This document shows, one piece after another, positions 6,067 to 55,429 of a stretch of 64,000 nt of DNA; the stretch's first letter is position 1; every line of letters begins with the position of its first letter. The notes beneath the pieces were generated by a model. The model worked only from the letters and a program-made list of their open reading frames with translations, was not told where the DNA came from and did not search any database. Location: positions 393,823 through 457,822 of the forward strand of contig NZ_CP110343.1 of NCBI RefSeq assembly GCF_034359305.1. Direction: 5' to 3'. Both the position numbers and the translations under genes were made by a program. The stretch is from Candidatus Fokinia cryptica. Its GTDB lineage: Bacteria > Pseudomonadota > Alphaproteobacteria > Rickettsiales > Midichloriaceae.

Positions 6067-7066
6067 GGTATGGAAAGATTTGTTGTTATTGTAGATTCAA
6101 TTTGTGGAATAGTTGTTTTAGAAAAGGAAGTTTTAGTATGTTTATTCTGATATAAGTAGGGATTGAAAATATTTGTATCAGGACGCGAGATATAAGTGTG
6201 ATAATAGATGGTGCTGCTCAAAATATTTACGTGAGGATAGCGAAGATCTAAGGGCGATAGAGATAAAATATCCCATGAGTGAAGACTCTTTTTGTATCAT
6301 GACTTTAGCTAGAGACTAAAGGGCGATAAATAAAATAGTGCAATAATGTTTATCTTATTTATAGCTTTCACTATACCTATGCTATCTTGTAATTGTGTGT
6401 TCCTACCATGAATTTACTTGAAAGTTACATCGAGAAAAAAAAAGAGCAATATCAGAACAACATCCTCGTTTTAAAATTTTTGAAGGTGGAAGCACGATAT
6501 TATATATGTAGTTTTTTTGTATCAACTTTGCTCCACACAATATATAGGATTACTACTCTAGAGTAGAAGGTACTCTTACAGAATTATCGAAATTACATAA
6601 TACAACACACAGCCAGTTGTTTGAGAATATCAAAAATAATTTTTTTAATAAGATAGCAATTGAATTAATCGAGAAAAGTTTTCCTAGTGGATTATAAAAT
6701 GCATGAGCATGTATGCTGTTTTAATGGAAAAAGAGACAAATTCCCTGTAATATGAGATATTGCTTCAATAGGAATGAGTCTTTTTTTGTATTTCACAAAG
6801 GGGATAGCATGTTTATTTTCTAAAGTAAAATCTCTCTTAGAAAACAAAAAAAAACATATAGTTAAATATTTATTGAATCTTCAATTGAGCATTACTACAG
6901 GTATAGTTGATTTGTACTAGGCTTCAATTGATTTTATCGAGCTTTCAATATAACTAGCAAGTAACATTCAAGTGCACGTAAAGAGCCTATGATAAGCTAA
7001 TGTCTAAACACATAGGGGAAAACATACCACTGCTTCCGCTGATATCAGAATCAGCCGAATTTTAGG
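6067..7066. other. One-kilobase region without intact genes
   Basis: Stops are frequent in every frame. The stretch holds a pair of similar 22-23 base sequences (6248-6270 and 6316-6337, sharing AGGGCGATA), the possible pseudogene at 6408-6697, and a short sequence at 6876-6906 that recurs at 13610-13640. It looks like a decaying former coding region of the kind common in Rickettsiales genomes. Confidence 0.5.
6408..6697 (+). pseudogene. Possible degraded coding remnant
   Basis: An ATG at 6408 opens a frame that runs into a nine-A tract. Shifting frame at that tract gives AISEQHPRFKIFEGGSTI, then, in the same frame after two stops, a clean 50-codon stretch ending KIAIELIEKSFPSGL. The amino-acid composition of these pieces is protein-like, but I do not recognise a family. 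The frame breaks and stops suggest an inactivated gene; chance cannot be excluded. Confidence 0.3.
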
Positions 7067-7108
7067 AAAAAACGAAAGCAGTGGGAGAGATGATTTTCAC
7101 TCCCCCAC
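7067..7108 (-). terminator. Rho-independent terminator of the groES-groEL operon
   Basis: Read on the minus strand, a nine-base-pair GC-rich stem (7100-7108 pairing with 7081-7089, one G-T wobble, ten-base loop) lies 14 bases after the groEL stop codon. It is followed by TGCTTTCG and a six-T run (7067-7072). Confidence 0.7.
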
Positions 7109-7122
7109 CACTCTATTTATTA

Positions 7123-8751: not shown

Positions 8752-8795
8752 CGTACAAAATTAATGAGTTAATTAAATATAATTTTTATTAGTGA

Positions 8796-9092
8796 TTATT
8801 TCGAAATTTTAGCCAAAATATCACTTTCTGATAAAATTACCAATCCTGAATCCTTTTCTATTTCTGTACCAGCCCACTTCGTATATATTACTATATCACC
8901 AGCTTTTAGATCTATAGGAGAGGAAGGTTCGTTAGAGCCCTTATTTACAGCTTTTCCAACAGATATTACTTCACCTCTTGTAGGCTTCTCCTTCATATTA
9001 TCAGGAATGATGATGCCCTCTGATTTTTCTTCAGTAATTCTCTTAATTAGAATTTTACCGGAATAAGGCGTTATGTTCTCTTTCATATTCAT
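8796..9092 (-). CDS. groES: Co-chaperonin GroES (10 kDa)
   Basis: This is the heptameric lid of the GroEL chamber. It is 98 residues, the standard size, with ITPYSGKILIKRI at the start, a mobile-loop region (EKSEGIIIPDNMKEKPTRGEVISVG) and the closing AGDIVIYTKWAGTEI and SESDILAKI. It is the first gene of the groES-groEL pair. The start ATG at 9092 is followed two codons later by a second ATG, and either could be used. Confidence 0.97.
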   Translation of the reverse strand: MNMKENITPYSGKILIKRITEEKSEGIIIPDNMKEKPTRGEVISVGKAVNKGSNEPSSPIDLKAGDIVIYTKWAGTEIEKDSGLVILSESDILAKISK

Positions 9093-9121
9093 TTAATAGA
9101 AAATAAATCAAATTGAATTAT

Positions 9122-9156
9122 GTAGATATTGAAAACAATAGTTCGCAACTATCTAC
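9122..9156 (-). promoter_or_regulatory. Inverted repeat in the groES leader
   Basis: GTAGATA and TATCTAC flank a smaller palindrome, TAGTT-CGC-AACTA. It is not the CIRCE element (TTAGCACTC-N9-GAGTGCTAA). It may be an mRNA leader hairpin of groES or the end of the rpmG transcript. Confidence 0.4.
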
Positions 9157-9160
9157 AAGG

Positions 9161-9191
9161 ATATATAGTAATGATTTCACACCTTTCAAGG
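9161..9191 (-). promoter_or_regulatory. Probable heat-shock (RpoH-type) promoter of groES
   Basis: On the minus strand, CCTTGAAA (ending near 9184) is followed about 15 bases later by CTATATAT (9161-9168). CTTGAAA is the sigma-32 minus-35 consensus. The minus-10 is AT-rich rather than the classic CCCCATNT. It is about 70 bases upstream of the groES start. Confidence 0.5.
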
Positions 9192-9210
9192 GGAAAGTGA
9201 ATAGAATGGC

Positions 9211-9399
9211 TTAGCCACTCATTTTTTTCTCTTTGAAAAGTATATGCTTTCTGAGTACAGGATCATACTTTTTGCAGTCTAAACTATATAATGACTTTGA
9301 GTTTTTTTTCCGTATGTAGAAAAAACCTGTATCTCCAGTGCTAATTAATCTACAGAGCATACTTTTTTTGCTCTTTTTACCTTTTTTTTTCGCTGCCAT
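9211..9399 (-). CDS. rpmG: 50S ribosomal protein L33
   Basis: This is a small basic protein of the large ribosomal subunit. The 62 residues carry the family core RLISTGDTGFFYIRKKNS, LDCKKYDPVLRKHILFKE, with an unusually lysine-rich N-terminus (MAAKKKGKKSKKS). It lacks the four zinc-binding cysteines of the other L33 type, as usual in Proteobacteria. It stands upstream of groES on the same strand but is separated from it by the likely groES promoter. Confidence 0.93.
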   Translation of the reverse strand: MAAKKKGKKSKKSMLCRLISTGDTGFFYIRKKNSKSLYSLDCKKYDPVLRKHILFKEKKMSG

Positions 9400-9991
9400 A
9401 TTTACTAAGATAGATGAAACACGTACCGCAATTCTACTAATTTATATTAATATATCTAGACGATTTTATAGTGAATGCGATATTGATTGAAATTTTTTTG
9501 ATATCACTGAGAAATTACGAAATGTAGATAGCTATTATTTCTGGCAGTTTCTAGAGGGTTTAGTATCTGATAGAGGTGAATTTTATAATAAGTCAAATAC
9601 ATAGGCAATCAAAAGAATTGGCAAGGCACTTATCAGAAGATACAACGAAATACCGATAAGAATACACGAAAAAGCAAAGAGAAAAGGGGAGAAAATAAGA
9701 AAACCCACTAAAAAAAGAAAAAACATAGTTCGGAAGAAGATGTACAATTTTTTTACATAATCAATAGATTACGAGATTTTGTCGTTTTTTATTCTGATAA
9801 AAAAACATGCCATCTTACTACAGTAAGTTCCGAAATAAAAACAGTGTTTTTTTATATCAACTGAAATTTACACCAAGTTGGTACAATATTTTAATTAGCA
9901 GTATGTTGACTTACTTATTAGCCTTTTATATCCCTAAGGTAGTGAAGGGGCTAGATCATGAGTCTAGTTATAGAAATCAAATTATCTGCTA
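9400..9991. other. Intergenic region upstream of the uracil-DNA glycosylase gene
   Basis: No gene is supported. A 61-codon frame at 9807-9992 ends where the next gene's first possible ATG begins, but its sequence matches nothing I know. A short stem with a seven-base loop at 9951-9967 resembles an anticodon arm but has no tRNA around it. Confidence 0.4.
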
Positions 9992-13249: not shown

Positions 13250-13336
13250 ATCAATTAGATAGTAATTTCAAGAATGTTTAATTTATTATAAATATACAGA
13301 ATAAAAATTAGAAATTCACTATAGAAGCTAATTATA

Positions 13337-13478
13337 TAAAAATTCATGCATTATAGGCTATCAATAGCCTGATAACATTTTTCAAAAAAAAAGCATAAAA
13401 ACTTATATAAGAATCATGGGTTGTAGCCCATCAATAGCTTGATAATATTTTTTTAAAAAAAAAGCATAAAAACTTATA
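13337..13478. repeat. Imperfect 70-bp tandem repeat, two copies
   Basis: Copy 1 is about 13337-13408 and copy 2 about 13407-13478. They share ATCAATAGC.TGATAA, a T run, nine A residues and GCATAAAAACTTATAT at a 70-base offset. Each copy carries its own short hairpin, and the stems have changed between copies while staying paired (GGCTA/TAGCC in one, ATGGG/CCCAT in the other). Confidence 0.7.
13351..13382 (+). terminator. Probable terminator after atpG
   Basis: GGCTA-TCAA-TAGCC, extended by flanking TTAT and ATAA pairs, is followed by ACA and five T. A second, similar unit at 13416-13454 (ATGGG/CCCAT with a seven-T run) may back it up. Confidence 0.5.
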
Positions 13479-13645
13479 TCCTTCAGTACTCTAGTGGAAC
13501 ACTGTAAAAACTTATAGCAATATGTCTAAGATTATAATATCGAACTAATTCATAATTAAATTCTAGTCTTTTCAGAAAAATGCAATTAATTAGAAAACAC
13601 TAAAAATTAAATCTTCAATTGGGTATTACTCTAGGTTTAGAAATT

Positions 13646-51300: not shown

Positions 51301-51634
51301 CAAGCTCTGCTGGTAAGCCGTGACAATCCCAACCTAGTTTGAACATCACTCTTTTACCGAGCATCGTATGATATCTTACGAAACAATCTTTGATATATGA
51401 GGTTAATATATGTCCCCAGTGTGGCATTCCATTTGCGAATGGAGGACCATCATGAAAAGATATATCGTGTTTGCCTTTGTTCAGTACAAGAGAGTTTATT
51501 TTGTTCTCTTGCCAATATTTTTGAATTTGTCTCTCGATTTCAGAAAAATCATTACATAACGATAAGTTTGAAAATTTGATAGTATTATCTGAATGAATAG
51601 TATTGAAGTTACTATCTGAAGTGGAACTTCTCAT
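48383..51634 (-). CDS. ileS: Isoleucyl-tRNA synthetase, eukaryotic-like type
   Basis: IleS charges tRNA-Ile. The class I signatures are FANGMPHWGHILTSYIKDC (HIGH-type motif HWGH) and GKKLSKRLQNFPDP (KMSKS-type motif). The tryptophan-zipped AWTTTPWTLTSN opens the editing domain, and EYAAQTRGWFYTMLVL follows later. The KLSKR form with NFPDP, and the 1083-residue size, put it in the IleRS2 group, the eukaryotic-like type that also occurs in Rickettsiales and is known elsewhere for mupirocin tolerance. The C-terminal zinc finger of bacterial IleRS1 is absent, as expected. It is complete and single-copy in the window. Confidence 0.96.
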   Translation of the reverse strand: MRSSTSDSNFNTIHSDNTIKFSNLSLCNDFSEIERQIQKYWQENKINSLVLNKGKHDISFHDGPPFANGMPHWGHILTSYIKDCFVRYHTMLGKRVMFKLGWDCHGLPAELEAEKELNIVGKAQIEDLGIQEFNSHCSKSVLKYTDEWLKYFHKSARWLKENEEYKTMDISYMQSVIWCFKKLYTDGLIYKASRIMPYSWKCETPISDFETRLDNSYREKESKAVTVLFEVKQSDYLFSLIGKNKKITLLAWTTTPWTLTSNLLLAINQNIPYSIVEYKNSIFIISESLLPKYVEEIGDNIIHTVLGKNLIGTQYQPIFQYFSDEPNAFRVVHGDFVTIENGTGIVHIAPGFGEDDHNLAKSHNVESICPVDDSCRFTFPVTDYIGRQVFDTENDIINALKIKNAWLKTEQYFHSYPHCWRTDTPLIYRAVPSWYLAVTQIKDKMLKLNQLIKWNPSHIQNGLFGKWLENARDWSISRTRYWGCPIPVWESDDPKYPHIEVYGSIEEIENSFGVKVTDLHRPFIDNLTKINPSDPTQKSRLVRVKEVFDCWFESGAMPFAQYGYPFGESSVISNFTAEFVVEYAAQTRGWFYTMLVLATALFNKIPFKNCIAHGVVLGTDGKKLSKRLQNFPDPLKTLEKLGSDAVRLFMLSSQATKGEDIIIDSDVTGAINIVKSITKPLWSAYNFLILYLKIDKLVPHDIYTAHSLLNHYILQKLLKTWTTIKNAMENYDTATCIQEIVSFLEILNNWYIRRSRHIFWQNERNKQKEEAFDTLYTVLLTLSKILAPLMPTLSEAIYLGLAEVSKSCKKSIHLEEYPELSQFEISTSFIDNMERVRLACNNALAIRNDQKIRIRQPLKCVTFIGVSDFNFSDEMREIILDEINVKEWINTDKTKIEEYANWTFKLNLPILGRTKPQYVKQILSDFRNKKFYYDGGNLIIGDIILNKDEFQKILEIKEEYRNVAKVLSDGVVILDTSLSQELIDEGIARDLIRFIQQSRKEQNLEITQKVIIDILVPEGSQKTKISSIITRFNEYILTTTLATKIEISSITSSITNSKFEIDILSLNGDINTANIQIVIHKIQ

Positions 51635-51750
51635 CTGTATATTTTAAGATGCATTTTATAGCGAAAGCGATTGTACTGCATAGAGTAAAAATCATCAATA
51701 AAAGTATATTCAGCTCAAAGTTATGAATTATTTTTTGTTTGGAAAATGAC

Positions 51751-51797
51751 AAAAAAACTATGTGTCACTCGCTATTCTTTCTAGCAAGTGGCACATA
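51751..51797 (-). terminator. Strong rho-independent terminator of the histidine-repeat gene
   Basis: On the minus strand a 16-pair stem (51782-51797 with 51759-51774, one wobble and one mismatch, seven-base loop) is followed by G and seven T (51751-51757). It begins 40 bases after the stop codon of the histidine-repeat gene and is the strongest hairpin I saw in the window. Confidence 0.85.
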
Positions 51798-51836
51798 TAT
51801 CTTCAGTTATAAAATTTTACTTTCAGTTGTAAAATT

Positions 51837-53234
51837 CTATTGTCCATGACATTGTTTATCATTAGATTTACAATAGTATTGTTGTAATTTCTCTAATTCT
51901 TCTCTCCACTTTTTCAATACGTGTTCAGCACTATCAGAGTGTAAGCCAGCGATAGTAGTAGCATTTGTATGGGCATTTTGTAGCATATCCTGTATAATAT
52001 TTACGAAATGATAATATGGTTTTGTTGTGCAATGATCTTGATTGATATTTGTATTGCATTTACTTATAAAACTTTTGATATGTTCGCACATTGTTGACAT
52101 TGCATCATGGTATTTTTTTGTTGCCTTCAACATATAGTCTGGAGTATTCCATTTTTCCATGAATTCCGAATAATCATTAGCTGAAGAAGTTGTATTATCT
52201 TCTGTTTTTTTATGTAGAGCGTGAGCCAAGTGAGGATGATTATGAACAAAGTGAGCCACATGAGATGCTAAATGCGGATGTTGATGCATAAAATGAGCCA
52301 AGTGAGGATGATTATGAACAAAGTGAGCCACATGAGATGCTAAATGCGGATGTTGATGCATAAAATGAGCCAAGTGAGGATGATTATGGGCAAAATGAGC
52401 CACATGAGACGCTAAATGTGGATGTTGATGCATAAAATGAGCCAAGTGAGGATGATTATGAGCAAAATGAGCCACATGAGACGCTAAATGTGGATGTTGA
52501 TGCATAAAATGAGCCAAGTGAGGATGATTATGAGCAAAATGAGCCACATGAGACGCTAAATGTGGATGTTGATGCATAAAATGAGCCAAGTGAGGATGAT
52601 TATGAGCAAAATGAGCCACATGAGACGCTAAATGTGGATGTTGATGCATAAAATGAGCCAAGTGAGGATGATTATGGGCAAAATGAGCCACATGAGACGC
52701 TAAATGTGGATGTTGGTACATAAAATGAGCCAAGTGAGGATGATTATGAGCAAAATGAGCCACATGAGCCGCTAAATGTGGATGTTGATGCATAAAATGA
52801 GCCAAGTGAGGATGATTATGAGCAAAATGAGCCACATGAGACGCTAAATGCGGATGTTGGTGCATAAAATGAGCCAAGTGAGGATGATTATGAGCAAAGT
52901 GAGCCACATGAGACGCTAAATGTGGATGTTGATACATAAAATGAGCCAAGTGAGGGTGATTATGAGCAAAATGAGCCACATGAGATGCTAAATGTGGATG
53001 TTGATGCATAAAATGAGCCAAGTGAGGGTGATTATGAACGAAGTGAGCCGCATGAGCCGCTAAATGCGGATGCTGATACATAAAATGAGCCAAGTGAGGG
53101 TGATTATGAGCAAAGTGAGCCGCATGAGCCGCTAAATGTGGATGTTGATGCATAAAATGAGCCAAGTGAGGGTGATTATGTAGGAAATTCGTTAAATGCG
53201 GATGTGATTCTATATAATTATGTGAATAAGACAT
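51837..53234 (-). CDS. Histidine-rich protein with thirteen 24-residue repeats
   Basis: I do not recognise this protein. After a 20-residue lead (MSYSHNYIES...), residues 21-332 are 13 consecutive units of exactly 24 residues, consensus HPHLAHFMHQHPHLASHV then AHFAHN. Nine of 24 positions are His. Variation is limited to a few positions (His/Tyr at 9, Ser/Ala at 16, Val/Ala at 18, Ala/Val at 22). A 14th unit breaks off after HPHLAHALHK. The C-terminal 120 residues are ordinary, helical and hydrophilic with five Cys (near 383, 393, 402, 455 and 462). There is no signal peptide or membrane segment. The gene has its own likely promoter and terminator. Possible roles are metal binding, surface or secreted interaction, or a structural fibre; none is shown. 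Confidence 0.85.
   Translation of the reverse strand: MSYSHNYIESHPHLTNFLHNHPHLAHFMHQHPHLAAHAAHFAHNHPHLAHFMYQHPHLAAHAAHFVHNHPHLAHFMHQHPHLASHVAHFAHNHPHLAHFMYQHPHLASHVAHFAHNHPHLAHFMHQHPHLASHVAHFAHNHPHLAHFMHQHPHLAAHVAHFAHNHPHLAHFMYQHPHLASHVAHFAHNHPHLAHFMHQHPHLASHVAHFAHNHPHLAHFMHQHPHLASHVAHFAHNHPHLAHFMHQHPHLASHVAHFAHNHPHLAHFMHQHPHLASHVAHFAHNHPHLAHFMHQHPHLASHVAHFVHNHPHLAHFMHQHPHLASHVAHFVHNHPHLAHALHKKTEDNTTSSANDYSEFMEKWNTPDYMLKATKKYHDAMSTMCEHIKSFISKCNTNINQDHCTTKPYYHFVNIIQDMLQNAHTNATTIAGLHSDSAEHVLKKWREELEKLQQYYCKSNDKQCHGQ
52239..53174 (-). repeat. Tandem coding repeat, 13 copies of 72 bp
   Basis: The 936-base array inside the histidine-rich gene is in perfect frame, with no spacer. Copies 12 and 13 (52239-52382) are almost identical to each other, copies 8-11 are nearly identical, and copies at the 5' end of the gene differ more (for example GCC for the Ala codons in units 1-2). 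Confidence 0.95.
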
Positions 53235-53926
53235 AATATTGTATTGATTTGATTAATAATATATTACTATCTTAATATCATTTTTATATAAGAGCAAGGA
53301 AAAATATAATAAATTATTTATCTCTCAATTAAGAAAGCATTGAATTTACGTTTTATGACATCATAATTTAATGGAAGTGCATTAAAATTAGAGAGGAGAC
53401 ATATTTTTTTTGATTTTTTAAGATAAATATGAAGAAGTGTAACGTGACGATGTTACTGCATAAATCGCTAAATTAAGTTTTTCTATTCTTTAATTTTTAA
53501 TTAAGTAGTATATACTTTCTTACTACGTTAAATCTATTTTATTATTTTTAATTTCATTCTTTTCCGTAACTTTTAAAAGTCAAAAATAAGATGAATTTAT
53601 CATATATTGACTATGCAGTAATCTTTAAAATTGAAAGTTCAATAATAAGTAATTTTTATAAACTAAACTATTGAAAAATGAGTGAATATAGCACTGAAAG
53701 ATACATGTTATCCTTATGAAAAAGTTACCATGTTATGCAATATATAATTAGATGATGTAATTTTGGTTCTGAAAATTTTCTATTATTTTCCATTATTATG
53801 TAACGTTCATTTTCAGAAGTAACAAACAACCATATGGATACTATAAATAAGCTTCATTGAATAATTAAGATCTTACGAGAATATAGAGCTTAAAAGAATG
53901 TGCAACAACTTTTGAGGTAGCCTACA
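53235..53926. other. Noncoding region between the histidine-repeat gene and the nucleotide carrier
   Basis: About 690 AT-rich bases without a supportable frame. The right-hand part lies just downstream of the carrier gene on the minus strand. The left end carries the probable promoter of the histidine-repeat gene. Confidence 0.5.
53269..53297 (-). promoter_or_regulatory. Possible promoter of the histidine-repeat gene
   Basis: On the minus strand TTGCTC (53292-53297) and TAAGAT (53269-53274) are 17 bases apart, with about 30 bases to the ATG. The same TTGCTY minus-35 form occurs before tRNA-Ser. Confidence 0.4.
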
Positions 53927-55429
53927 TCAAGTTATAATCTTGTTTTCTTTTATTGATACAGAATATTTAGCACCCATTCCATATGCAATAAATATCCATG
54001 CAGCACATACTATAGAAATAAATATATCGTTGCACAGTAATACTAAGAACATTCCTACTTTAGTAGCAACATTTGAACTAAAGTAATTGAATGCATTGGT
54101 GATAGCCTTTGCTCCTTTTATCGCAAATGCATCAAGAACAAATTTGGATTTTAATTGTATATCGCGTGAAGTGATGATATATAAGCTTTCTCTGATGGGG
54201 GTATTTAAGCTATAACTTAAAGCATGCAGTATAACATATGCATATATGATAAAGTGGGTATTAAATATATAAAATCCAAGTAGTATTGCTGTTACTAATG
54301 GCATTATTAGTAAAGCTTTTGCTGTTCCTAATGTCCTCATTACACCATTTGTGAGAAATACAGAAAGCAAGAATCCTACAAAATGCATATATAAAATTTG
54401 AATATAAGAGCTACCTGCTATCTGGCTAACAGAATTTATAGAGCCTGCACTTTTGAGTTTTGCACTCGAACTGACAAGTAGTATCACTCTTTGAAAGCTT
54501 ATAAATTCTGTTATTAACTCTAAGCAGAAAATTAGTCCAAATATTCCCAATACATATCTATTTTGCAAAATAAGTCTTAGTCCTAAAAAAATACCCGTCT
54601 TGGAAATTTTCTCTGAAAGTATAGATGCTCCAAGATAGCCTTCAAATACGCTTCTCTTAAAAAGCTTAGTTGCTAACGATAATGTGAGCAGTGCAACGAA
54701 AAGCATTGTAATTGCACACGTTATGACGAGTTTTATCTTTTGTATATCGGTTGTACATCCGAGTGCTGTATCAAAGAACCCTTTCATAATGCAGTGAGCT
54801 AGATATACCGATACAATCCCTCCAATTTTGGAACAAGATACTATGAATCCATATATTCTTTCTGAGCTTTTAGGGCTATTGATAGAATTCACAAAAGCCC
54901 AAAATGTACTCACCAGAAATACCATATATCCTTCGGAAAACATAAAAAATGTCCAAGATGCAGCTTTCTCTCCTAACGTAAGAAATGGCAACGATTCCGC
55001 ATTTATTTTATCGAATGGTACAACGAACAAAAGGAATAATCCAAGGAAGATCCACATACATATGTATAGCTTTAAAAGTGATATTCTCCTCACTCTATCA
55101 GCAAGATAAGCATCTATGAAAATCCACGGAAACAACAATCCCAATGTTATAAGCTTTGCGACAGGTACATTACTCACTCCTACTAATGCTGAAAATACGA
55201 TATTTTGTAATTCATGCACAACAGAGTAGGAGCCTATTAGCATCGCAAACAGAAAACCGCTTAAGAGTAGCTTCTTCACTTCCATTGCATCAAGAGAAAA
55301 GAATCGTGTAAAAATACTCTTAAAATCGAAATTATGCATAATAGTATATTGCTTTTTCGGAATAGCTACCAAAAACTTATTAAAATTCTTAATCGCAGAT
55401 GAAAATAGCTTTATTAAGAAGTTCTTCAT
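53927..55429 (-). CDS. tlc: NTT/Tlc-family nucleotide (ATP/ADP-type) carrier
   Basis: This 12-helix inner-membrane carrier belongs to the family that lets Rickettsiales and Chlamydiae import host ATP or other nucleotides. The 500 residues show the family's helix pattern, with an N-terminal extension of about 45 residues before KKLLLSGFLFAMLIGSYSVVHELQN. The central and C-terminal parts keep the family feel (SEGYMVFLVSTFWAFVNSINSPKSSERIYGFI, IITSRDIQLKSKFVLDAFAIKGAKA). In the first helix, canonical members have Arg-Asp-x-Lys-Asp; here the stretch reads HELQN, so the transport-critical lysine seems replaced by Gln. Substrate may therefore differ from ATP/ADP. It is single copy in this window. 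Confidence 0.85.
   Translation of the reverse strand: MKNFLIKLFSSAIKNFNKFLVAIPKKQYTIMHNFDFKSIFTRFFSLDAMEVKKLLLSGFLFAMLIGSYSVVHELQNIVFSALVGVSNVPVAKLITLGLLFPWIFIDAYLADRVRRISLLKLYICMWIFLGLFLLFVVPFDKINAESLPFLTLGEKAASWTFFMFSEGYMVFLVSTFWAFVNSINSPKSSERIYGFIVSCSKIGGIVSVYLAHCIMKGFFDTALGCTTDIQKIKLVITCAITMLFVALLTLSLATKLFKRSVFEGYLGASILSEKISKTGIFLGLRLILQNRYVLGIFGLIFCLELITEFISFQRVILLVSSSAKLKSAGSINSVSQIAGSSYIQILYMHFVGFLLSVFLTNGVMRTLGTAKALLIMPLVTAILLGFYIFNTHFIIYAYVILHALSYSLNTPIRESLYIITSRDIQLKSKFVLDAFAIKGAKAITNAFNYFSSNVATKVGMFLVLLCNDIFISIVCAAWIFIAYGMGAKYSVSIKENKIIT

What the first reader, a model, noticed from the sequence alone, without database searches (positions are those of the whole stretch)
51837..53234. 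Histidine-rich protein of 13 identical-length 24-residue repeats with no recognised family
The protein is dominated by 13 units of exactly 24 residues, 9 of them His in the consensus (37%). I know no Rickettsiales family with this unit. It lacks a signal peptide and sits between ileS and the nucleotide carrier as its own transcription unit. A His density like this points to metal (Zn, Ni or Cu) binding, pH-dependent assembly, or an effector acting in the host. Of everything in the window, it is the best candidate for something undescribed.
Basis: partly seen in the sequence, partly recalled or inferred. Interest (0 to 1): 0.8.

Follow-up and report, generated by a model that had tools for sequence, protein, structure and literature searches.

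The report
Histidine-laddered helical repeat protein
A bacterium with a very small genome carries a protein predicted to be a chain of about 28 short helices whose polar side is mostly histidine, so that metal ions or acidity could switch it; no close relative was found, and its job is still to be shown.

Summary
ORF 51837-53234(-), 465 aa, holds 13 units of exactly 24 residues without indels, 9 His in the consensus, plus half units at both ends. Differences between units are mostly silent (pN/pS 0.125), and a terminator-like hairpin follows the gene. Each unit splits into 10- and 14-residue halves, each opened by His-Pro and predicted helical. Residues 11-342 hold 121 His, one Lys and no Asp, Glu or Arg; other polar residues are few (mainly one Asn, one Gln, one Ser per unit). 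91 of 93 His between the His-Pro motifs have an i±3/4 His partner. Close relatives: none in 53 relatives beyond the own genome. In 306 genomes of the order there were two other hits, one low-complexity, one an Asn-Pro repeat protein (L061) with the same 10/14 spacing. L061 matches ubiquilin/XPC-binding (STI1-like) Pfam models; ours does not. Best reading: an X-Pro short-helix repeat whose polar surface became mostly histidine, a multivalent metal (or proton) binder; fold predicted, function untested. Rivals: acid-triggered membrane-active protein, coat of polyhydroxybutyrate granules (PhaC present, no recognisable phasin; homology test not significant), STI1-like groove, dispensable repeat.

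The parts
51837..53234 (-). the gene: 465-aa histidine-rich repeat protein
   Evidence: the ORF listing and translate; one copy in the window's own genome
53145..53204 (-). start of the array, residues 11-30: two 10-residue halves in tandem (HPHLTNFLHN, HPHLAHFMHQ; the second lies in the first full unit)
   Evidence: HP spacings 10, 10, 14, 10, 14 ...
52245..53180 (-). 13 complete 24-residue units (residues 19-330), each with a 10-residue and a 14-residue half opened by His-Pro
   Evidence: model: alternating 9- and 13-residue helices
52212..52244 (-). partial last unit HNHPHLAHALH (residues 331-341)
51840..52211 (-). C-terminal region, residues 342-465: predicted helical at low confidence, 5 Cys (383, 393, 402, 455, 462), no homologue found
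51751..51797 (-). terminator-like hairpin followed by seven U, about 40 bases after the stop codon
   Evidence: strand folding -19.7 kcal/mol, z -6.37, 0 of 200 shuffles as good; not listed by the pattern scan

Best explanation
A lineage-specific, non-enzymatic repeat protein. Its array is a chain of about 28 short amphipathic helices of 10 and 14 residues, each started by His-Pro, the same helix-length code as an Asn-Pro repeat protein of the STI1-like kind, with most polar positions turned into histidine. The hydrophobic residues (Leu, Phe, Val, Met, Ala) pack the helices; the His ladders (i, i+3/i+4, i+7) bind transition-metal ions, most likely zinc, at many sites, with protonation below about pH 6.5 as the release switch. 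The protein thus acts as a metal buffer or store, or as a metal-dependent assembler, inside the bacterium; the C-terminal region is a second part, perhaps for oligomerisation or docking. Shown here: the repeat, the excess of silent differences, residue pattern and 10/14 spacing. Predicted: the helices. Inferred: metal binding, the ion, the location and the cellular role.
For: 121 His, 0 Asp/Glu/Arg, 1 Lys among residues 11-342; other polar residues there are 15 Asn, 13 Gln, 10 Ser, 3 Tyr, 1 Thr. 8 of the 9 consensus His columns are invariant in 13 of 13 units; column 11 is His in 10, Tyr in 3. 91 of 93 His in the segments between His-Pro motifs have a His at i±3 or i±4; 0 of 121 His is followed by His. 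pN/pS 0.125. Alternating 9/13-residue helices in the model, block pLDDT 81-93 for residues 41-300. Same 10/14 code in L061; the real column order beats permuted orders: 0 of 2000 reach it, 0 of 2000 with His masked, 6 of 2000 with His and Pro masked.
Against: No metal-related neighbour was recognised: the flanks are a class I tRNA synthetase and a protein without a Pfam match. No inventory of metal transporters or metalloenzymes of the genome was made. The array lacks His-His pairs, unlike Hpn-type proteins (recalled). The structure rests on one single-sequence prediction (best model mean pLDDT 73.0, the other four 62.0 to 46.7). Plain helix packing would also conserve the pattern, and units that copy one another are not independent. 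Foldseek finds no fold match at E<=0.001.
Confidence: 0.38

Rival explanations
1. Acid-triggered membrane-active protein: exported without a signal peptide (for example by a type IV system), nearly neutral at pH 7.4 and strongly cationic below pH 6, when the amphipathic helices insert into or disturb an acidic host membrane, much as histidine-rich amphipathic designer peptides of the LAH4 kind do.
For: Computed net charge of residues 1-333: +2.6 at pH 7.4, +57 at pH 6, +107 at pH 5; apart from one Lys the array's charge can come only from His. The 14-residue helix is amphipathic beyond its shuffles (1.1% as high). In LAH4-type peptides the His positions define a hydrophilic angle of the helix (start of the abstract of PMC8160934, listing). 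Ca. Fokinia solitaria, a Midichloriaceae member, lies naked in the cytoplasm and is quite often seen in autolysosomes (one section read, PMC4701390); that the window's organism belongs to that family is my inference, and that it behaves so is not known.
Against: No export signal identified and none tested; whether the genome has a type IV secretion system was not searched; the 10-residue helix is not significantly amphipathic (10.2% of shuffles as high); the His-Pro kinks break the helices; LAH4 peptides carry Lys ends (recalled), this array has one Lys.
Confidence: 0.17
2. Coat protein of polyhydroxybutyrate granules, standing in for a lost phasin: the C-terminal helices or the amphipathic array bind the granule.
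For: The window's genome has an intact-looking PhaC (E 1.8e-41, frame of 612 aa; over the Pfam cut-off) but no Phasin_2 match at E<=10. In 23 family genomes all 7 with a phasin over the cut-off also have PhaC. The C-terminal region scores 5.4 bits against an HMM of 33 phasins of the order plus L105; 4 of 705 background windows, 1 of 132 helix-rich ones and 74 of 5000 shuffles reach that. Two longer phasin-domain proteins of the order have Lys/Ala-rich N-terminal tails (L133, L137), a precedent for a low-complexity N-terminus.
Against: Not significant: with the family-only HMM 165 of 5000 shuffles, 10 of 705 windows and 3 of 132 helix-rich ones reach the score; with the long phasins 824 of 5000 shuffles do; the top background window is a PRPP-synthetase-like ORF (by eye); hhalign P 0.42. 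A Cys-spacing resemblance to L105 was not backed up: a search with L105 did not return this gene at E<=1, and L105's genome (83% complete) has no PhaC match. G014 also has PhaC without a phasin match and lacks this gene.
Confidence: 0.12
3. STI1-like client-binding repeat: the X-Pro-turned helices form a hydrophobic groove for greasy segments, with His giving pH or metal control.
For: L061, with the same 10/14 spacing, matches XPC-binding (E 3.5e-22) and UBQLN1 (E 8.6e-19), both over their Pfam cut-offs. In STI1, six helices with about 90-degree turns, some at conserved prolines, make a Met-rich hydrophobic groove (passages of PMC13083928).
Against: The protein itself matches no STI1-type model at E<=1; repeat E-values are inflated (L061 also 'matches' a WD40 chain at 6.6e-11, and a KKPAA repeat at 4.1e-6). 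The Foldseek and VIA-align rows hold no STI1 chain, which does not exclude it.
Confidence: 0.1
4. A recently expanded, lineage-specific repeat with a merely structural role or none (surface layer, filler, or drift by slippage).
For: Found only in this genome among 53 relatives; units nearly identical (95% matches), as recent duplication gives.
Against: pN/pS 0.125 and 8 of 9 invariant His columns in a reduced 815,586-base genome.
Confidence: 0.15

Closest known systems
Asn-Pro repeat protein of another genome of the same order (G075, L061:1213-2682 -)
   Same: Helix-opening motifs (NP and five variants chosen by eye) 10 or 14 residues apart in 31 of 32 gaps, the other 24; often Leu at +2 after Pro, as here (by eye)
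   Different: Polar positions are Asn, Gln, Glu, Lys, Arg rather than His; 10 and 14 do not strictly alternate; ends differently; E 1.9e-14 is inflated by repetition, so descent is not shown
STI1 / XPC-binding domains (ubiquilin, Rad23)
   Same: Short helices turned at X-Pro; L061 matches PF09280 and PF23195
   Different: Ours has no match at E<=1 and is a long regular array; in the Rad23B stretch printed the X-Pro spacings are not 10/14 (counted by eye)
Hpn and Hpn-like histidine-rich nickel proteins of Helicobacter
   Same: High His content and, for those, nickel binding (titles and abstract starts, listing)
   Different: Here no adjacent His at all (0 of 121), His spaced for helices, 465 aa. 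Hpn's own sequence was not fetched; its small size and His runs are recalled
LAH4-type histidine-rich amphipathic peptides
   Same: His placed on the polar side of an amphipathic helix (start of the abstract of PMC8160934)
   Different: Designed short peptides; here about 28 short helices broken by His-Pro
Phasins (Phasin_2, PF09361)
   Same: Helical C-terminal region of similar length (predicted, low confidence); PhaC in the genome
   Different: No significant sequence match
Verrucomicrobiota protein with tandem HPDLAVFLPT (L059)
   Same: A 10-residue His-Pro-opened repeat HPxLAxFxxx
   Different: One His per unit, no 14-residue half, another phylum; likely convergent (inference)

Membership tests
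STI1 / XPC-binding (PF09280, PF23195) | match to the family's profile | tested here: not met
   Pfam scan of the whole protein at E<=1 lists HTH_6, DUF4172 and UEV only
STI1 / XPC-binding (PF09280, PF23195) | X-Pro-turned short helices | tested here: met
   HP every 10 or 14 residues, helices between them in the model only
STI1 / XPC-binding (PF09280, PF23195) | helical-hand fold with hydrophobic groove | tested here: inconclusive
   1 Foldseek row and 6 VIA-align rows, designed proteins
Phasin (PF09361) | match to the phasin profile | tested here: not met
   0 matches in the own genome at E<=10; session HMMs of 7 and 33 phasins, each plus L105: 4.9 and 5.4 bits, reached by 165 and 74 of 5000 shuffles
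Phasin (PF09361) | PHA synthase in the genome | tested here: met
   PhaC_N E 1.8e-41
Phasin (PF09361) | binds PHA granules | not testable with these tools
   needs an experiment
Histidine-rich metal-binding proteins (Hpn type) | high His content | tested here: met
   121 of 332 residues in the array
Histidine-rich metal-binding proteins (Hpn type) | runs of adjacent His | tested here: not met
   0 of 121 His followed by His; that Hpn has such runs is recalled
Histidine-rich metal-binding proteins (Hpn type) | metal binding shown | not testable with these tools
   needs ITC or ICP-MS
RpiR-type regulator (HTH_6, PF01418) | one contiguous HTH_6 domain | tested here: not met
   49.8 bits in all (cut-off 28.3) but 0 stretches pass E<=1 on their own; the best, residues 200-231, lies inside the array

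The most novel reading that the evidence does not exclude
A natural short-helix repeat in which most of the polar surface has been converted to histidine, leaving about 330 residues with no acidic residue and, besides His, one basic one: a protein-scale switch whose charge and metal load depend almost wholly on His, used by a minimal endosymbiont to sense or buffer metal or acidity (possibly on PHB granules or in the host).
Probability: 0.2. Interest if true: 0.75.

Novelty: new variant of a known kind. Interest (0 to 1): 0.5.

Why it matters
If true, it would be a natural helical repeat whose charge is set almost wholly by one ionisable residue type, useful for understanding metal and pH sensing and as a template for designed metal-binding repeats. 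It is also a lineage-specific gene apparently kept under selection in an 815,586-base genome, where little is spared.

Tried and rejected
Close relatives: none credible by protein search in phages, plasmids, viral contigs (1 pattern match, none confirmed, C-terminal region: 2, none confirmed), genome contigs (8 pattern matches, none confirmed), 53 relatives (1 of 53, the own genome) and 306 genomes of the order (3 of 306: own, L061, L062; the long minus-strand frame of L062 is a leucine/serine/proline-rich repeat). Metagenome contigs were not open. C-terminal region alone: 7 of 53 genomes at E<=0.1 including the own; best other one E 0.006, 16.6 bits, 65 residues of a 627-aa frame; the six others were not followed up.

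HP-spacing patterns: 35 viral stretches, read in one frame each as His-Pro-rich low complexity or frames with stops; 15 genome contigs stretches with the looser HPxLAxFxxxHPxLA pattern: L059 is a real 10-residue HP repeat, L054 has 10-residue HPSLAA-type repeats in one frame, L060 two copies of a 10-residue HP unit, the other 12 look like chance by eye.

Positional counterpart upstream of ileS in family genomes: 23 loci (one the window's own; L075 and L078 gave no upstream frame; several contigs end early), frames of 50 or more codons, first 110 residues read by eye: no His-rich gene seen.

Phasin homology: not significant. Cys-spacing resemblance to L105: not confirmed. Rfam in 51600-54000: nothing at E<=0.5. 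Fold search of the C-terminal model (residues 335-465, mean pLDDT 50.1): 160 matches at E<=10, 0 at E<=0.001; the 50 rows shown are mixed, mostly helical proteins. Weak C-terminal matches in NCBIfam (best E 0.006) and PHROGs (best E 0.009) lie far below the NCBIfam cut-offs or have no known function.

Literature (open-licence library only): 0 papers with 'histidine-rich', 'tandem repeat' and 'Rickettsiales'; 13 papers with three of four terms, the 10 listed have 0 occurrences of 'histidine-rich'; 1 paper, on a nudibranch; 1 paper, on SAR11, for phasin + Rickettsiales + polyhydroxybutyrate. The Fokinia genome paper and a Midichloriaceae review are not held. The genome search has no searches left, so secretion systems and metal genes of the genome were not looked for.

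Full report
What is there. The window holds, at 51837-53234 on the minus strand, an ORF of 465 codons from ATG. Its array has 13 complete units of exactly 24 residues, consensus HNHPHLAHFMHQHPHLASHVAHFA, 9 His of 24; in the DNA the period is 72 with 95% matches and no indel. The gene is single copy in its own genome of 815,586 bases (the two other rows are the opposite strand of the same place, with 13 and 11 stops). A hairpin of -19.7 kcal/mol (z -6.37, 0 of 200 shuffles as good) followed by seven U lies about 40 bases after the stop codon; the simple scan did not list it. Upstream lie 692 bases without an ATG frame of 100 or more codons. No Rfam match in 51600-54000 at E<=0.5.

It looks selected. 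Among the 13 units silent differences outnumber replacements per site: pS 0.197, pN 0.025, ratio 0.125. Eight of the nine His columns are invariant in 13 of 13 units; column 11 is His in 10 and Tyr in 3. Units may have copied one another, so they are not independent and the ratio is a guide, not a test.

The architecture. The unit is bipartite: HPHLAHFMHQ (10) and HPHLASHVAHFAHN (14); the second looks like the first with four residues, about one helical turn, put in. The HP spacings run 10, 10, 14, 10, 14 .... AlphaFold2 on the single sequence gives helices of 9 and 13 residues between the His-Pro positions throughout the array; block pLDDT is 81-93 for residues 41-300 and lower at the ends (52-79 before, 59-73 for residues 301-340); mean 73.0 for the best model, 62.0 to 46.7 for the other four. 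Foldseek has no match at E<=0.001 in PDB or BFVD; the six VIA-align rows are designed proteins with Z up to 7.4, which the tool warns may mean only a common arrangement.

The chemistry. Residues 11-342 hold 121 His, one Lys and no Asp, Glu or Arg; the other polar residues are 15 Asn, 13 Gln, 10 Ser, 3 Tyr and 1 Thr, i.e. mainly the Asn and Gln just before the His-Pro turns and the Ser of column 18. The computed net charge of residues 1-333 goes from +2.6 at pH 7.4 to +57 at pH 6 and +107 at pH 5. In the segments between His-Pro motifs 91 of 93 His have a His at i±3 or i±4; no His is followed by another (0 of 121). The 14-residue helix is amphipathic beyond its own shuffles (1.1% reach it); the 10-residue helix is not (10.2%). 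So the array is, if the model is right, a row of short helices with a hydrophobic side and a mainly histidine side. Helical i/i+4 His pairs are textbook sites for Zn, Ni and Cu (recalled).

Relatives. None by descent that can be shown. The protein search hit 1 of 53 relatives, its own genome, and 3 of 306 genomes of the order: itself, L061 and L062. The long minus-strand frame of L062 is low-complexity. L061 is an Asn-Pro repeat protein of 489 aa in genome G075. Its helix-opening motifs (NP and five variants that I chose by eye) lie 10 or 14 residues apart in 31 of 32 gaps; the other gap is 24. Against L061 the real unit order was reached by 0 of 2000 column permutations, 0 of 2000 with His masked, 6 of 2000 with His and Pro masked, 0 of 2000 with Pro held in place, 2 of 2000 with Pro held and His masked. 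A reciprocal search with L061 over 343 genomes of the order returned 4 genomes: L061 itself, this gene at 1.3e-8, a KKPAA repeat at 4.1e-6, and G220 with a frame holding 11 stops at 8.5e-10 and an overlapping open frame of 238 aa at 4.6e-7 that I did not read. Such E-values must therefore not be trusted. L061 itself matches XPC-binding (3.5e-22) and UBQLN1 (8.6e-19) over their cut-offs, the STI1-like kind, in which prolines sit at turns between helices that form a hydrophobic groove (passages of PMC13083928). Our protein matches neither at E<=1. I therefore say that it is built like an X-Pro short-helix repeat, not that it is a member of STI1. A pure 10-residue HPDLAVFLPT repeat in a Verrucomicrobiota contig (L059) shows that a 10-residue form arises elsewhere too.

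An automated trap. Pfam HTH_6 scores 49.8 bits, above its cut-off of 28.3, which a pipeline could print as an RpiR-type regulator; no stretch passes on its own and the best one lies inside the array. I treat it as a sum over repeats.

The C-terminal region (342-465) is predicted helical with poor confidence (residues 335-465 alone: mean pLDDT 50.1) and has 5 Cys. It looked phasin-like to the eye, so this was tested. The genome has PhaC and no Phasin_2 match at E<=10. In 23 family genomes 7 have a phasin over the cut-off and all 7 have PhaC; PhaC without such a phasin occurs in G000 (own), G014, G013 (67% complete), G003 (match in two pieces) and G017 (a stop inside). Phasin HMMs made here score the region at 4.9 bits (7 family phasins plus L105), 5.4 bits (33 phasins of the order plus L105) and 0.6 bits (4 long ones): 165, 74 and 824 of 5000 shuffles reach that, and 10 and 4 of 705 windows of other proteins for the first two; hhalign P 0.42. 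The idea remains open, not supported.

How it most likely works. Shown: repeat, excess of silent change, residue pattern, 10/14 spacing. Predicted: helices. Inferred: that having His at most polar positions is the point of the protein, hence metal binding with proton-driven release; zinc is my guess as the commonest such ion. Acid-triggered membrane action, a granule coat, a client-binding groove and a merely structural repeat are the rivals, with the probabilities given. No context gene decides among them; the neighbours scanned include a class I tRNA synthetase (ileS), SecE, NusG and FtsK, housekeeping genes.

Novelty. No description was found in the searches made, which cover open-licence papers only. 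The parts, His-rich metal binding and X-Pro helical repeats, are known kinds; their union in one array without acidic residues I have not met. I file it as a new variant of a known kind, interest 0.5.

Noticed in passing
L094:4682-6520 (-) (own genome, G000:C1 about 686.7-688.5 kb): An intact-looking PHA synthase (PhaC, 612 aa, GYCLGG box by eye) is kept in an 815,586-base genome that has no recognisable Phasin_2 protein.
   Followed up: partly
   Followed up: partly
L061:1213-2682 (-): A 489-aa Asn-Pro repeat protein in a genome of the same order matches the XPC-binding and UBQLN1 Pfam models over their cut-offs; a bacterial STI1-like array worth its own study.
   Followed up: partly
L133, L137: Longer phasin-domain proteins with Lys/Ala-rich N-terminal tails in genomes of the same order, in the manner of PhaF (recalled).
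   Followed up: no
window 6067-7122 and 8752-9991: Two stretches over 1 kb without an ATG frame of 100 codons, the longest gaps in a window that is 80% coding by that measure.
   Followed up: no
window 13332-13479: Tandem 71-base repeat of 2.1 copies, 85% matches.
   Followed up: no
L054: One frame of a Desulfobacteraceae contig holds tandem 10-residue repeats of the HPSLAALGF kind.
   Followed up: no
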